Below, piece after piece: positions 3,065 through 8,896 of a stretch of 42,326 bases of DNA (positions are counted from its first letter, which is position 1; each line of letters opens with the position of its first letter). The stretch is taken from positions 1 to 42,326 of the forward strand of contig QZJG01000002.1 in NCBI GenBank assembly GCA_003599275.1, given 5' to 3'. The notes under the pieces were generated by a model, which was given only the letters and a program-made list of their open reading frames with translations, did not search any database and was not told where the DNA came from. Origin of the DNA: Nitrospiraceae bacterium (lineage in GTDB: Bacteria; Nitrospirota; Thermodesulfovibrionia; UBA6902). A program made the position numbers and the translations under genes.

Positions 3065-5398
3065 ATGAAAAAGATAACGTTAAAAGGAAACATCAACGGC
3101 AAGCGCACCCCTTCGAGGATTTTTGAGGAAGAAATCCAGGATGCAGTCCGCCAGGGTGTGCGGGAGCTTCACGTCGTTGCCGACGGGCAGCACGGCATAG
3201 GCGGACGCATATGGCCGAAGGGCGAGGCTGTAAAGATTACGGTTGAGGGGCCTGTCGGACAGAGGCTCGGCAGTATGGGTATGTTCGGCACCGAGATCGT
3301 GGTAAAGGGAAGCGCCTCTGATGATGCCGGCTGGATCAACTGCGGGGCAAAGATTACAGTGCTTGGAGACGTCACAAACGGCGCCCACAATGCCGCAGCG
3401 CAGGGGGTGCTCTATGTGCAGGGCAGCGGCGGCGCGCGCTGCGATACCATGACGAAGCACAATCCAAAGTTTGATCCGCCGCAGTCGTGGTATTTCAGAG
3501 ACGTGGGCGATACCTTTGCGGAATTCAAGGCAGGCGGCATCGCGGTTGTCTGCGGGGTAAACCCCCGGAATCCCGAAAGTGTTCTCGGTTACCGTCCGTG
3601 TGTCGGAATGGTGGGCGGGATGGTATATTTCCGTGGACCTATACAAGGCTACAGCGAAGGCGACGTCAGGCTCCTTGAGCTGACCGATCAGGACTGGCAA
3701 TGGCTTACTGCAAACATAAGACCTTACCTTGATGCAATCGAACGAACTGCATACCACGAGGAACTCACACGCTCAAAAGACGAATGGAAAAAGCTTGTTC
3801 CCTACACTGCACAGGAGCGTGCAAAGAAAAAGGCCTTCAAGATGTCCATCGCTGAGTTTCGCGGCAGCGTATGGGAGGCGGGAGTCGGCAAGGGCGGGAT
3901 TTTTGCAGAGTATCTGAACCATCCTTTCTCCGTCCTTCCGTATATAACCACAGGAGCTGACCGGAGATACAAGCCGGTATGGAATAATTACAAGTATGCT
4001 CCGCCGTGCGAATATGCATGTCCAAGCGGAATACCCACTCAAAAGCGCGCACAGCTTCTAAGGGCGGGAAAACTCCACGAGGCGCTCGAGCTGGTCCTTC
4101 AGTACAGCCCGCTGCCTGCAACCGTCTGCGGCGAGATATGCCCGAACCTCTGCATGCAGTCCTGCACGAGATCGCGGCTGGACAGGCCTCTCAATATCAA
4201 GGAGCTGGGGAAGGCAAGCAGAGATGTCTCCGCGCCGAAGCCGGAGGGAAAAACAGGGAGGAAGGTTGCCGTTGTCGGCGGCGGCCCCGGCGGGTTGTCC
4301 GCAGCGTGGCAGCTTGCGCTGAAAGGGCATGACGTCGATCTTTATGAGGCCGAGGAAAAGTTAGGCGGCAAGCTCGAACTCTGCATCCCGAGGGAAAGGC
4401 TTCCGCAGGAAGTCCTTCAAAAGGAGCTCGACAGATTCCGGGAGACGGGTATTAATGTCGAATTGGGCGCAAAGGTATCCAAAGATAAATTTGATGAGAT
4501 ATATAAAAACCATGACGCCGTTGTTGTCGCATGCGGGGCCCACAAGCCGAGGATGATGAACATCCCCGGCACGGAAGACACTGTTTCCGCATATGACTTT
4601 TTAAAAGGAATAAATATCGGCGATGCCCCGAAATTGCAAGATAAGAGAGTGGTCGTCATCGGCGCGGGCAATGTAGGAATGGACGTTGCAGCCCAGGCCT
4701 TCCACTGCGGCGCTAAAGAGGTGACGGCAGTTGATATTCAGAAACCTGCTGCATTCGGCAACGAGCTTGAGATCGCCCAGTCATTGGGAACGAAAATCCT
4801 CTGGCCGAAGTTCACCGAAAAATTTGTAAAGAAGGAAAAGAAGATCTACTTTACCGACGGCTCATCGCTTGACGCGGATGTTGTCGTTGTGTCCATTGGC
4901 GATATGCCGATGACGGAATTCCTCCCACCCTCAGTGCACACAAACAAACAGGGCTGGATAGAAGCGGACGAAGTCGGCCACACATCCGATCCAAAAGTTT
5001 ATGCAATCGGCGATGCAACCAAACTCGGACTTGTAACACACGCCATCGGTCACGGCAGAAAGGCCGCCGATGCCGTTCACGCCCTGCTTTCAGGAAGGTC
5101 TTATTACATGCCCGCCAAAAGGCCAATCGTCCCGTATGATAAGATTAAGACCTCCTACTATGATATCTGCAAAGGCGAGCCCTTCAAACCTGAGACGGAA
5201 GCTAACAAATGCATGTCCTGCGCCGTGTGCAGGGACTGCCGTATGTGCGAGGCGACATGTTATTACGGGGCCATCAGCAGAAAGGAAAATCCGGACGGCT
5301 CATATGAATACGTGGTTGACGAAAACCTCTGCATCGGATGCAGCTTCTGCGCGGGCATCTGCCCCTGCGGCGTGTGGGAGATGACGGAGAATATTTAG
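3065..5398 (+). CDS. glutamate synthase GXGXG domain fused to GltD-type NAD(P)H oxidoreductase and ferredoxin
   Basis: This 777-residue protein fuses three modules. Residues 1 to about 245 are the GXGXG beta-helix that normally ends GltB (GQHGIGGRIWPKG, GWINCGAKITVLGDVTNGAH). Residues about 310-700 are the GltD-type reductase: an N-terminal cysteine-rich helical domain (CEYACPSGIPTQKRA, CGEICPNLCMQSC), an FAD site (VAVVGGGPGGLSAA, near residue 400) and an NAD(P)H site (VVVIGAGNVGMDVAA, near residue 528). The C terminus, from about residue 716, carries a further cysteine-rich ferredoxin (CMSCAVCRDCRMC, CIGCSFCAGICPCG). It presumably takes electrons from NAD(P)H and passes them to the synthase subunit encoded upstream. 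The gene is separated from its partner by a 194-base repeat cluster, and its start has no clear Shine-Dalgarno sequence. Domain calls are firm; the cofactor preference (NADH or NADPH) is not visible. Confidence 0.9.
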   Translation: MKKITLKGNINGKRTPSRIFEEEIQDAVRQGVRELHVVADGQHGIGGRIWPKGEAVKITVEGPVGQRLGSMGMFGTEIVVKGSASDDAGWINCGAKITVLGDVTNGAHNAAAQGVLYVQGSGGARCDTMTKHNPKFDPPQSWYFRDVGDTFAEFKAGGIAVVCGVNPRNPESVLGYRPCVGMVGGMVYFRGPIQGYSEGDVRLLELTDQDWQWLTANIRPYLDAIERTAYHEELTRSKDEWKKLVPYTAQERAKKKAFKMSIAEFRGSVWEAGVGKGGIFAEYLNHPFSVLPYITTGADRRYKPVWNNYKYAPPCEYACPSGIPTQKRAQLLRAGKLHEALELVLQYSPLPATVCGEICPNLCMQSCTRSRLDRPLNIKELGKASRDVSAPKPEGKTGRKVAVVGGGPGGLSAAWQLALKGHDVDLYEAEEKLGGKLELCIPRERLPQEVLQKELDRFRETGINVELGAKVSKDKFDEIYKNHDAVVVACGAHKPRMMNIPGTEDTVSAYDFLKGINIGDAPKLQDKRVVVIGAGNVGMDVAAQAFHCGAKEVTAVDIQKPAAFGNELEIAQSLGTKILWPKFTEKFVKKEKKIYFTDGSSLDADVVVVSIGDMPMTEFLPPSVHTNKQGWIEADEVGHTSDPKVYAIGDATKLGLVTHAIGHGRKAADAVHALLSGRSYYMPAKRPIVPYDKIKTSYYDICKGEPFKPETEANKCMSCAVCRDCRMCEATCYYGAISRKENPDGSYEYVVDENLCIGCSFCAGICPCGVWEMTENI

Positions 5399-5528: not shown

Positions 5529-5932
<404 letters not shown>

Positions 5933-5933
<1 letters not shown>

Positions 5934-5960
5934 GATTTCCATCATGGCGCAGGGAAATCC
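5933..5960 (+). terminator. stem-loop immediately after the P-II stop codon
   Basis: GGATTTCC (5933-5940) and GGAAATCC (5953-5960) are perfect 8-base inverted repeats around a 12-base loop, beginning at the last base of the P-II stop codon. No U-tract follows, so it is either a weak terminator or an mRNA 3'-end stabiliser. Confidence 0.4.
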
Positions 5961-6039
5961 ATACACCATCCCGCCTTTAAATGCCGAGAGTTGCGCATTG
6001 ATTTATTAAAATCCAAAGGGTTACCCGGATACGTTTTAT

Positions 6040-6055
6040 TGGCACACAAGTTGCA
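6040..6055 (+). promoter_or_regulatory. sigma-54 (-24/-12) promoter
   Basis: TGGCAC (6040-6045), a 5-base spacer and TTGCA (6051-6055) match the RpoN consensus TGGCAC-N5-TTGCA. The invariant GG (6041-6042) and GC (6053-6054) are exactly 10 bases apart. The predicted transcription start is near 6066, giving a leader of about 49 bases before the small gene at 6115. I found no second site of this quality in the window. No clear NtrC-type enhancer dyad was recognised upstream, so the activator is unknown. Confidence 0.85.
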
Positions 6056-6114
6056 TTTACCTTACATTAAAGAAAGACGGCAGTATTTAATAATCTTTTA
6101 TCAGGAGGTGTGCC

Positions 6115-6246
6115 ATGACATTACAGGAACTTACCGAAAAGATCAAAAGGACGTGCGGGGCGTGCGAGGAGTGCGACCCATGCTGTACAGGCAATATTCT
6201 TAAAAAATGCATTGAAAATGACAGGGTCTCTCTGGCGTCGGTTTAG
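6115..6246 (+). CDS. 43-residue cysteine-rich protein under sigma-54 control
   Basis: A short frame begins at ATG 6115 behind a strong Shine-Dalgarno sequence (AGGAGGTG, 6 bases before the ATG) and ends at TAG 6244-6246. It encodes 43 residues with a short helical N terminus (MTLQELTEKIKRT). A cysteine cluster follows at positions 14, 17, 20, 23, 24 and 32. Cys14, 17, 20 and 24 reproduce the CX2CX2CX3C spacing of a ferredoxin-type 4Fe-4S ligand set, although the usual proline after the last cysteine is absent. Zinc or another metal is equally possible. There is no signal peptide, so it should be cytosolic. I do not recognise the family. The perfect sigma-54 promoter and the neighbouring P-II gene suggest a role in nitrogen or stress physiology, but this is inference. 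Confidence 0.75.
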   Translation: MTLQELTEKIKRTCGACEECDPCCTGNILKKCIENDRVSLASV

Positions 6247-6300: not shown

Positions 6301-7404
6301 ATGACTAATAAAATCGGAACAGGCGACGCCGGCAATATACCGCCCGCTGCCGTATCAGGTAAGGGACTCCCGATACGGCCGGGCACGGTTGTCAGGGCGG
6401 AAGTCATGGATGTCCCGGAAGACGGCAGTGCGGTCCTTCGCATCATGTCATCGGGTGGCAGAGAGACAATCATTAAGGCCTTTACCGAAGTCCCGCTGAC
6501 AAAAGGACAGAACATCTACCTCGAAGTATTGGGCAGCGGGAATAATGTCAGGATGCACTTCATTGGGGACATTAAAGAACCGGCGACTCCCCTTCAGCAG
6601 AATGTCCCCGTGAGGTTCCTCGCAATGTTGGCCGGGCTTTCCGCATCAAGGCCCGGCAATCCGGAATTCAAAGAGCTACTGAATATGCTCAGCTCTCTTC
6701 CCGGCAATATCAAGGCCGCCATACCCGAGCTTGAAGGCCTTGAAAAATTGCTCCTTGGCGCCAAACAGATCGACGGCAATATTCTCCGTGCTTTCATAGA
6801 GACCTCGGGCGTGGCCTTTGAAACGAGGATGAAAATAGCCGTGCTGAGCGACCCGGGCTCAGTCCTACGGGGCCTCATGGCCTTACAGACTGAAGGAGAT
6901 CTGAAGGGTATTCTTCTCAGACTCAAGGGCCTGTTGAAAGGGAAGGATGTCGTCAAAACCCTCAGACAGGCCGGGGTCAAGGCTTCAGAGATGTTGGAAA
7001 TGATAGAAAGGTTCACCCGGAATATAGAGTTTTTCCAGTTGACCTCAAAGATCAACGACATGTTTTATACCTTTCTCCCCCTCCTGTGGGACGGATTAAA
7101 GGACAGCGAATTTCTGTTCAGAAGAGATAAACATGAAAAGCGCGACGCTTATGTGTGCGATATAAATCTCGACCTCGAAAAAATAGGGAAACTCTCCGTG
7201 TCGGTGAATGTGATGGAGAAGGCGTTTTATGTCGCTTTTTTTGCCGAGCGGGCGGAAGTCGCCGCCTTTATTAACTCAGAGAAAAAATTACTCGAGGACA
7301 GGTTCGCATCACAGGGACTTGCACTGAAAGGCATAACGGTCCATCACAAAAAGGACATAGTGTTCGGGCGTGTGCAACCCCGGGGAGTCAGCATAAGGAC
7401 ATAA
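6301..7404 (+). CDS. FliK-like flagellar hook-length control family protein
   Basis: This 367-residue protein resembles the FliK/YlqG group, which senses hook length and interacts with FlhB in the flagellar export gate. The N-terminal part (residues about 25-90, PIRPGTVVRAEVMDVPEDG) looks like a small beta domain. The middle is helical and low in conservation. The C-terminal about 80 residues (KIGKLSVSVNVMEKAFYVAF) resemble the FliK C-terminal domain. The next gene, 3 bases downstream, encodes a free-standing FlhB C-terminal domain, and this pair is a recurring arrangement outside the main flagellar cluster. No other flagellar gene is present here. The start has no Shine-Dalgarno sequence and appears leaderless. 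The assignment rests on C-terminal similarity and on the neighbour. Confidence 0.65.
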   Translation: MTNKIGTGDAGNIPPAAVSGKGLPIRPGTVVRAEVMDVPEDGSAVLRIMSSGGRETIIKAFTEVPLTKGQNIYLEVLGSGNNVRMHFIGDIKEPATPLQQNVPVRFLAMLAGLSASRPGNPEFKELLNMLSSLPGNIKAAIPELEGLEKLLLGAKQIDGNILRAFIETSGVAFETRMKIAVLSDPGSVLRGLMALQTEGDLKGILLRLKGLLKGKDVVKTLRQAGVKASEMLEMIERFTRNIEFFQLTSKINDMFYTFLPLLWDGLKDSEFLFRRDKHEKRDAYVCDINLDLEKIGKLSVSVNVMEKAFYVAFFAERAEVAAFINSEKKLLEDRFASQGLALKGITVHHKKDIVFGRVQPRGVSIRT

Positions 7405-7407
7405 GCC

Positions 7408-7683
7408 ATGAAGGAAAAACCATTAAAGTCTGCAGCGCTAAAATACACGCATGGCAAAGACCCTGCGCCCGTGCTCATTGCCAAAGGCAGGGGCAAGGTT
7501 GCCGAAAAAATCATCGAGGCCGCCAAGGCCCACGGTATACCCATCCATGAAGACGGGGAGCTTGTCGAATTCCTCTCGATGCTTGACCTTTATCGGGAGA
7601 TCCCGCCTGAACTGTACAGGGCGGTTGCCGAAATTCTTGCGTTCATATATTCAATAAAGCGGAAAACACCGGGCCTGTTATAG
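7408..7683 (+). CDS. free-standing FlhB C-terminal domain protein (FhlB/YlqH type)
   Basis: This 91-residue cytosolic protein corresponds to the C-terminal tail of the flagellar export switch FlhB, without its membrane part. The pattern ALKYTHGKDPAPVLIAKGRG, then AEKIIEAAKAHGIPI, then LVEFLSMLDLYREIPPELYRAVAEILAFIY matches the FlhB/YscU tail downstream of the autocleavage site. The NPTH cleavage motif itself is absent. Such paralogues can partly replace the FlhB tail in other bacteria. It sits 3 bases after the FliK-like gene and is presumably co-translated with it, consistent with a FliK-FlhB interaction module. Confidence 0.85.
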   Translation: MKEKPLKSAALKYTHGKDPAPVLIAKGRGKVAEKIIEAAKAHGIPIHEDGELVEFLSMLDLYREIPPELYRAVAEILAFIYSIKRKTPGLL

Positions 7684-7773
7684 CCGCGTACGGATTTTTC
7701 ATGTATAATAAGTTTTGACGAATTTTAGTAATTAAGAGAGAAGTTTTTCTTTCGATCCCGGAGGTATCAGCTA

Positions 7774-8896
7774 ATGGCTACGTATGATGTAAAAGATAAA
7801 TTAAACGAGATCCAAATGAGAATCGACGCCCTCAGGAGGTATCTTTGATGTACCGCATAAAAATTATCGGCTCGATACCCTTCAAAAAGAGCTTTTAGCC
7901 GAGGGCTTATGGGAAGACCCTGCAAAGGCGCAGGAGCTGCTGAAAGAGAAATCCGGCATTGAAAGCACCCTTCAACCCCTTATCCAAATAGAAAAAAAAT
8001 ATGAGGACCTCGCCCTCCTTCTTGAGCTGTCGGCTGAAGAAGGAGGAGAAGACCTTCTGAAAGACGCTGATGAAAGCATTGAAGGGCTTTTATCGGAGCT
8101 TGATGACATCGAATTAAAAAGTATCCTTTCGCAAAAGGAAGACAGTCATAACGCCATAATGACCATTCATCCCGGCGCAGGCGGCACGGAAAGTCAGGAC
8201 TGGGCGCAGATACTGATGAGGATGTATATCAGATGGGCCGAGCGCGTGGGCTTCAAGGTGGAGATAGCAGACCTGCTGCCCGGCGAAGAGGCCGGGATAA
8301 AGAGCGCGACCCTGACCATAAGCGGCCCGTACGCATACGGCTATTTAAAGGGAGAGGCCGGCGTTCATCGCCTGGTGAGGATCTCGCCGTTTGACGCCAA
8401 CAAGAGACGTCATACCTCGTTTGCCGCCATACTTGTGTATCCGGAGATAAGCGAAGACATTGATGTAGAAGTAAGAGAAGACGATCTGAAGCTTGACACC
8501 TTCAGGGCCTCAGGCGCGGGCGGACAGCATGTAAACAAGACATCTTCTGCGGTCAGGCTCACCCACCTCCCTACCGGCATTGTCGTCAGTTGCCAGAACG
8601 AACGCTCACAGCACAAAAACAAAGCAATGGCCATGAAGATACTCAAGGCGCGTCTTTATGCAATGAAGAAAAGGGAACAGGATGAAAAGCTTGAAGGCTT
8701 TATCGGAGAGAAAAAAGACATTGCATGGGGCAGCCAGATACGCTCTTACACTCTTCAGCCATATCAGCTCATTAAAGATCACAGGACAGGCTTTGAGGCC
8801 GGCAATGTGAATGCCGTGCTGGACGGCGCGATCGACGACTTTATAAAAGAGTATTTGCTTATTAAAAAGAAGGGCGCTCCATCAGCCTCCGGGTAA
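7774..8896 (+). CDS. prfB: peptide chain release factor 2, expressed by programmed +1 frameshift
   Basis: The protein recognises UGA and UAA stop codons and triggers peptide release. Translation starts at ATG 7774 behind CCGGAGG and reads 24 codons to CTT-TGA. It then shifts +1 (GAT at 7847) and continues to TAA 8894-8896, giving about 373 residues, close to the family length. The RF2-specific SPF tripeptide ([11 protein letters not shown]) and the catalytic GGQ loop ([18 protein letters not shown]) are both present. The internal TGA is not a lesion: it is the conserved autoregulatory site, where low RF2 raises frameshifting. [21 protein letters not shown] leader precedes the site as in other bacteria. 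The gene has its own 90-base upstream gap with a TATAAT at 7704-7709. Confidence 0.97.
7834..7848 (+). promoter_or_regulatory. prfB programmed +1 frameshift signal
   Basis: The internal Shine-Dalgarno element AGGAGG (7834-7839) is followed by TAT-CTT-TGA. This places it three bases before the slippery CTT codon, as in the classical RF2 site. The base after TGA is T rather than the C found in E. coli. Confidence 0.95.

What the first reader, a model, noticed from the sequence alone, without database searches (positions are those of the whole stretch)
6040..6246. Sigma-54-controlled micro-ferredoxin-like protein next to P-II
The sequence shows a consensus -24/-12 promoter (TGGCAC-N5-TTGCA), a strong ribosome site, and a 43-residue frame with cysteines at 14, 17, 20, 23, 24 and 32. 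Positions 14/17/20/24 fit CX2CX2CX3C. Established knowledge: sigma-54 often drives nitrogen genes, and P-II is the central nitrogen sensor. Inference: this is a nitrogen- or stress-induced small Fe-S or metal protein that I do not recognise. It is easy to miss because it falls below usual gene-length cut-offs.
Basis: partly seen in the sequence, partly recalled or inferred. Interest (0 to 1): 0.72.

Follow-up and report, generated by a model that had tools for sequence, protein, structure and literature searches.

The report
Sigma-54-driven cysteine-rich microprotein family
A tiny, unnamed cysteine-rich bacterial protein is real and conserved in relatives, and the DNA switches in front of its gene point to cell-surface and flagellar control systems rather than to nitrogen control.

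Summary
The 43-residue frame (6115-6246), the -24/-12 site (6040) and the ribosome site are there. In 37 genomes of the family I count 19 intact genes in 16 genomes, plus one broken copy and one contig-end fragment. They evolve as protein (pS > pN in 153 of 153 pairs). A -24/-12 site precedes 18 of 19; the nineteenth has an assembly gap there.

The nitrogen reading is not supported. P-II/glnA neighbours are confined to one genus, and the sigma-54 promoter of amtB in those same clusters has a different enhancer (TACA-N4-TGTA), absent from all 20 microprotein upstream regions checked. Those carry, at fixed spacing, T1 (near TGTATG-N6-CATACA, the published GlrR/QseF geometry; 13 of 18) or T2 (GGAA-N5-TTCC, also found before flagellar genes). 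The three two-copy genomes have one copy of each type.

Best reading: a small effector, probably [4Fe-4S] or metal binding, made on demand by a GlrR-like and/or a flagellar sigma-54 activator; in two genomes it sits where GlmY sRNA sits in Enterobacteriaceae. Metal binding, target and activator identity are unproven. No Pfam or NCBIfam family matched convincingly; no PDB match.

The parts
6115..6246 (+). Cysteine-rich microprotein gene, 43 aa; C14, C17, C20, D21, C24 invariant in 19 aligned members
6040..6055 (+). Sigma-54 promoter -24/-12 (TGGCAC-N5-TTGCA); start expected near 6066 (prediction)
5948..5965 (+). T1 enhancer, CGCAGGGAAATCCATACA, 93 bp before the -24 GG; left half degenerate
   Evidence: score 14.4, p 0.001; for the position
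5933..5940 (+). GGATTTCC at the place where single-copy relatives of the genus have a T2-like site; perhaps a decayed T2 (inference, not significant)
   Evidence: (T2 p 0.484)
6020..6023 (+). GTTA element 21 bp before the -24 GG, possibly part of an IHF site
   Evidence: 11 of 18 promoters, mononucleotide shuffles mean 1.9, maximum 6
6103..6110 (+). Ribosome-binding site AGGAGGTG
5595..5933 (+). P-II gene upstream (context, not shown to be a functional partner)
   Evidence: PF00543 E 9.1e-35
6301..7404 (+). FliK-like gene 54 bp downstream; possible read-through partner, since no + strand terminator-like site was found in between
   Evidence: PF02120 E 3.3e-10
7408..7683 (+). FlhB C-terminal-domain-like gene behind it
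   Evidence: PF01312 E 1.9e-19

Best explanation
A family of 39-60-residue proteins without a signal peptide (N-terminal helix-like stretch, CX2CX2C-D-P-C-C loop, second short helix-like stretch; all judged from sequence) is made on demand from a sigma-54 promoter. In most members the activator is a GlrR/QseF-like response regulator of the glrK-lipoprotein-glrR operon, bound to TGTATG-N6-CATACA 102-107 bp (or one helical turn less, 93 bp) upstream of the -24 GG, perhaps with IHF bending the DNA in between. In others it is the flagellar sigma-54 activator, bound to GGAA-N5-TTCC; some promoters carry both. The protein most likely binds a [4Fe-4S] cluster or another metal through Cys14/17/20/24 and acts as a small effector or feedback factor that ties surface and motility programmes to redox or metal state. 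Shown by computation: gene, coding constraint, promoter, enhancers, genes that share them. Inferred: which proteins bind the enhancers, IHF, metal binding, effector role.
For: 19 intact genes under purifying selection. -24/-12 at 18 of 19. T1 at 13 of 18 promoters, each p<=0.010, at 93-107 bp; T2 at the other 5, each p<=0.025, and also at G004 and G006. Perfect TGTATG-N6-CATACA directly behind glrR in G005, G006 and G009, where another gene follows. Published QseF sites: TGTN12ACA with IHF at the sigma-54 promoter of glmY (PMC6075780, passages); TGTCN10GACA (PMC8745638, passages). Among NCBIfam models the adjacent response regulator scores best with GlrR. T2 plus promoter: 55 matches over 37 genomes against 5 for the reversed control; 21 of 30 such loci look flagellar (Pfam on representatives). 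Presence: GlrK in 17 of 18 genomes with a hit against 8 of 19 without; flagellin 18 of 18 against 12 of 19. Two-copy genomes G000, G026 and G034 have one T1 and one T2 copy each. Nitrogen-type promoter of amtB has another enhancer.
Against: The window's own T1 has CGC where TGT is expected. G004 has gene and T1 but no close GlrK. Both motifs were first seen in these upstream regions, so their p-values are post hoc; the 20 T1 training sites came largely from a search with the half-site CATACA taken from them, and were picked by eye from a noisy list. The strict T1+promoter pattern gave only 19 matches in 11 of 37 genomes, several of them probably chance and one in a genome without GlrK (G014). 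GlrR's cut-off is not met (478.5 against 763 bits). The T2 activator was not identified. Presence counts are not corrected for kinship. Conserved C23 (18 of 19) and C32 (15 of 19), and no proline after the last cysteine, are unlike a textbook ferredoxin. No structure could be predicted. The gene is absent or broken in close relatives (G002, G005, G008, G009).
Confidence: 0.6

Rival explanations
1. One reading: a nitrogen-stress protein switched on by an NtrC-type activator, working with P-II or glutamine synthetase.
For: P-II lies upstream in five loci of the genus and convergent glnA follows in seven. Sigma-54-like sites stand at amtB in those clusters. In Enterobacteriaceae glrR is followed by glnB (PMC8745638, passages), so a real GlrR/P-II link is conceivable. 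Loose NtrC-like patterns do match in four loci inside glnA, once in window ORF 3065-5398 and once before the receiver gene of G004.
Against: None of these NtrC-like matches lies at a microprotein promoter; the amtB enhancer TACA-N4-TGTA is in 7 of 7 amtB and 0 of 20 microprotein upstream regions; no NtrC over cut-off in the own genome; neighbourhood not kept outside the genus.
Confidence: 0.12
2. A zinc- or thiol-type regulator (for example of the AAA+ activators or of a flagellar component) that needs no Fe-S cluster.
For: C23 and usually C32 are kept too; controlled by two activators that share only sigma-54 and the AAA+ core; FliK-like and FlhB-like genes follow in the window.
Against: The minimal invariant set is the ferredoxin-like CX2CX2CX3C; the few weak profile hits of members include NuoI and LdhH, both iron-sulfur proteins (nature of the families recalled).
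Confidence: 0.25
3. The transcript is a regulatory RNA like GlmY and the frame is incidental.
For: Same kind of promoter as glmY and, in G024 and G030, the same place before glrK.
Against: pS>pN in 153 of 153 pairs; no unusual fold; no Rfam family at its cut-off.
Confidence: 0.03

Closest known systems
glmY, the sigma-54/QseF(GlrR)-activated gene of the Enterobacteriaceae qseEGF locus
   Same: Sigma-54 promoter; enhancers near TGT-N12-ACA; possible IHF site; place next to glrK-lipoprotein-glrR (before glrK in G024 and G030)
   Different: The product is a small protein, not an sRNA; other phylum; some copies have a flagellar-type enhancer instead; most lie behind glrR or away from the operon
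2[4Fe-4S] ferredoxin motif CX2CX2CX3C
   Same: Spacing of the four invariant cysteines
   Different: Single half motif in about 43 residues, T (not P) after the last cysteine in 18 of 19, extra C23 and usually C32, no Fer4 model match
Flagellar sigma-54 genes (FlgF/G, FliK, FliS, MotA) of the same genomes
   Same: T2 copies share GGAA-N5-TTCC and the sigma-54 box
   Different: The microprotein is no known flagellar part, and most copies have T1 instead
Small proteins that act on P-II or glutamine synthetase, such as PirA and the GS inactivating factors (recalled)
   Same: Small size; P-II/glnA neighbourhood in one genus
   Different: No sequence relation was tested; the control region points elsewhere

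Membership tests
Sigma-54-dependent genes | -24/-12 element with GG-N10-GC | tested here: met
   18 of 19 intact genes, the nineteenth has a gap
Sigma-54-dependent genes | Activator site about 100 bp upstream | tested here: met
   T1 or T2 at 18 of 18 promoters (post hoc motifs)
Sigma-54-dependent genes | rpoN present and required | not tested
   rpoN was not searched; about 25 strong matches to a sigma-54 activator model in the own genome make it likely
GlrR/QseF regulon | Enhancer TGT-N12-ACA | tested here: inconclusive
   Met letter for letter in some relatives (e.g. G021, G026, G036; G015); the window copy is CGC-N12-ACA
GlrR/QseF regulon | GlrR orthologue in the genome | tested here: inconclusive
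   GlrK-lipoprotein-GlrR operon in G000; best NCBIfam model GlrR but under its cut-off for the G036 protein tested
GlrR/QseF regulon | GlrR binds and activates the promoter | not testable with these tools
   Needs footprinting or a mutant
Flagellar sigma-54 regulon | Enhancer GGAA-N5-TTCC shared with flagellar genes | tested here: not met
   Window copy p 0.484; met by the second copy in the own genome, p 0.001
Nitrogen (NtrC-type) regulon | Enhancer shared with amtB of the same clusters | tested here: not met
   7 of 7 amtB, 0 of 20 microprotein upstream regions
Ferredoxin | CX2CX2CX3C | tested here: met
   19 of 19
Ferredoxin | Match to Fer4-type models | tested here: not met
   no Fer4 match for the window protein; only weak NCBIfam hits in single members (NuoI 2 of 17, best E 0.013)
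Ferredoxin | Bound [4Fe-4S] cluster | not testable with these tools
   Needs purified protein and spectroscopy

The most novel reading that the evidence does not exclude
In this lineage the GlrK-GlrR surface-sensing system speaks through a tiny Fe-S protein where Enterobacteriaceae use the small RNA GlmY, and the same microprotein has been shared and passed between the GlrR and the flagellar sigma-54 regulons by enhancer exchange: both enhancers in one promoter, or one each after duplication. It would be a redox-aware link between surface and motility programmes.
Probability: 0.3. Interest if true: 0.75.

Novelty: new variant of a known kind. Interest (0 to 1): 0.6.

Why it matters
It adds an unnamed protein family below usual gene-length cut-offs, with an unusually readable control region. 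It suggests that a GlrR-type system, known mainly for GlmY and rpoE in Enterobacteriaceae, has a protein output in a Nitrospirota lineage. The T1/T2 pattern, both in one promoter or one each after duplication, is a natural case of regulatory rewiring that can be tested directly.

Tried and rejected
Nitrogen/NtrC control. 

Relatives outside the family. Phylum sample: 5 of 295 genomes, four of them family members, the fifth (G223) judged chance on reading. Class sample: 23 of 230, of which 18 are the family genomes above; of the other five weak ones I read G012, G199 and G308 and judged them unrelated; G303 and G341 were not read. Genome contigs: 19 pattern stretches, 14 relatives, titled as Nitrospirae, Nitrospiraceae or Thermodesulfovibrionia bins or 'Bacterium BMS3Abin06'; the pattern CDPCCT[GW][NY] cannot find members as distant as G027. 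Viral contigs: 13 pattern stretches, 0 relatives. Plasmids: no match. PDB: 0. Pfam: two weak matches under their cut-offs. NCBIfam: three weak families in 1 or 2 of 17 members each. PHROGs and PADLOC were not searched.

RNA reading: (z 0.56); one Rfam row, a eukaryotic snoRNA, 22 bits against a cut-off of 39.

CATACA-N65-95-GGCA-N7-TGC over 37 genomes: 37 of 37 genomes have matches, control hits are fewer but present, many matches look like coding sequence, and the list was cut. I picked 20 by eye; L147 and L148 are doubtful.

Literature (search listings unless said): CDPCCT gave 0 papers; searches listed nothing that I recognised as this family. Seen as passages: PMC6075780, PMC8745638, PMC12691602, PMC3162934.

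Full report
A profile of the frame hits 18 of 37 genomes of the same family. Of its 26 rows I keep 21 places: 19 intact genes in 16 genomes, one broken copy behind P-II (G009) and one contig-end fragment (G030); five weak rows were dropped after reading. Named records from the species scan are Nitrospirae/Thermodesulfovibrionia metagenome bins. Over 36 codons of 18 genes synonymous change exceeds non-synonymous change in 153 of 153 pairs, pN/pS 0.28. The most distant member (G027) lacks Cys23 and Cys32 but keeps Cys14, 17, 20 and 24, which are invariant in 19 of 19.

Promoter. Of 19 intact genes, 18 have GGCA-N6-TTGC (17) or GGCA-N6-GTGC (1), 59-157 bp before the start of the match. In the nineteenth (G015) the expected spot is an assembly gap, with a perfect TGTATG-N6-CATACA upstream. 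The boxes were picked with a loose pattern, so their likeness is only partly independent. In the own genome the strict pattern occurs 34 times against 2 for its reversed control.

T1. Aligning the promoters showed an imperfect palindrome 93-107 bp before the -24 GG in 13 of 18, near TGTATG-N6-CATACA, that is TGT-N12-ACA. Published QseF (GlrR) sites are TGTN12ACA, used with IHF at the sigma-54 promoter of glmY (PMC6075780, passages); another paper gives TGTCN10GACA (PMC8745638, passages). In G005, G006 and G009 a perfect copy stands directly behind glrR. The glrK-lipoprotein-glrR operon borders the microprotein gene in nine genomes: the gene lies behind glrR in seven (G013, G015, G021, G026, G031, G034, G036) and before glrK in two (G024 and the fragment of G030), the place that glmY holds in Enterobacteriaceae. 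The regulator's best NCBIfam model is GlrR, under its cut-off. The middle gene is a TPR/YfiO-like protein by Pfam; calling it QseG-like rests on position. A further element, GTTA 21-23 nt before the GG, is in 11 of 18 and may mark an IHF site.

T2. The five promoters without T1 (G000 second copy, G023, G026 and G034 second copies, G027) carry GGAA-N5-TTCC or a one-letter variant at 90-113 bp. Of the 34 strict sigma-54 sites of the own genome, 30 were held as loci; 4 of these 30 have T2 and all 4 look flagellar (two FlgF/G-type, two FliK-like; one of each confirmed by Pfam). Over 37 genomes T2 plus promoter gives 55 matches in 25 genomes, the reversed control 5. I read 30 of the 55: 21 look flagellar from their first residues (FlgF/G-type 5, FliK-like 9, FliS 3, MotA 4), 3 are microprotein genes, 6 look like chance or are unknown. 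Pfam confirmed FlgEFG (L191, L215), FliK (L199, L235), FliS (L218, L228) and MotA_ExbB (L211); two FliK-like frames cut by the locus end (L214, L221) gave no FliK match.

Partition. G000, G026 and G034 have two copies each, one T1 and one T2. The five single-copy genomes of the window's genus (G001, G003, G004, G006, G007) have T1 with a T2-like site 15-19 bp further upstream; single p-values 0.001-0.079, combined 1.4e-5. The window copy has no significant T2. G010, without the gene, still has a T1-like site before glrK.

Nitrogen test. In the seven glnA loci of the genus (glnA, P-II, amtB and glnE confirmed by Pfam on one representative each) the first amtB has a -24/-12-like site at its start in 7 of 7. 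Upstream of it stand palindromes TACA-N4-TGTA, 57-74 bp and mostly also 128-145 bp before the site (in G000 distances were not measured). This motif is in 7 of 7 amtB and 0 of 20 microprotein upstream regions. So a sigma-54 nitrogen promoter seems to exist next door, and the microprotein does not share its enhancer.

Presence. GlrK (E<=1e-75) is in 17 of 18 genomes with a microprotein hit and 8 of 19 without; flagellin in 18 of 18 and 12 of 19 (Fisher p 0.001 and 0.008, not corrected for kinship). G004 is the exception for GlrK.

Other genes behind T1-type sites include an L,D-transpeptidase/SPOR protein, a PilZ protein, an acetyl-CoA-synthetase-like protein and small secreted-looking proteins; these sites were picked by eye from a noisy list. 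They would fit the view of sigma-54 as controller of the cell exterior (PMC3162934, passages).

Function. CX2CX2CX3C in an anaerobic lineage most often means [4Fe-4S] (recalled), so I commit to an Fe-S or metal effector, about one chance in two for Fe-S. What it acts on cannot be told from sequence. The P-II link is a neighbourhood in one genus, perhaps an echo of the glrR-glnB order in Enterobacteriaceae.

Noticed in passing
window 7690-8896 (prfB): Release factor 2 gene with the usual programmed +1 frameshift: a short first frame ends at ...AGGAGGTATCTTTGA and continues in the +1 frame.
   Followed up: partly
window 3065-5398: 777-aa fused protein with a GXGXG-like region, a pyridine-nucleotide oxidoreductase domain and a C-terminal Fer4-type part, upstream of P-II.
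   Followed up: no
L024-L028, L040, L023: upstream of the first amtB: Repeated palindrome TACA-N4-TGTA upstream of a sigma-54-like site at amtB, a candidate nitrogen-activator enhancer of this genus.
   Followed up: partly
L027 and L028 (G004, G007), between P-II and the microprotein gene: A 122-aa receiver-only response regulator with its own CATACA half-site and sigma-54 box.
   Followed up: partly
L036, L038, L039, downstream of the microprotein gene: A TerB-family gene follows these T2-type copies on the same strand; possible partner. TerB confirmed by Pfam for L039.
   Followed up: partly
L038 and L039, upstream of the microprotein gene: A 68-aa NifU-like protein under the Pfam cut-off and a larger ASKHA-looking protein (named from recall).
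   Followed up: no
L172 (G010), just before glrK: T1-like site kept although the microprotein gene is absent.
   Followed up: partly
L202 and L203 (own genome contig 30): Two neighbouring sigma-54 boxes with the same letters TGGCACAGCGTTTGC before genes for secreted-looking proteins; perhaps a PEP-CTERM-type regulon (recalled).
   Followed up: no
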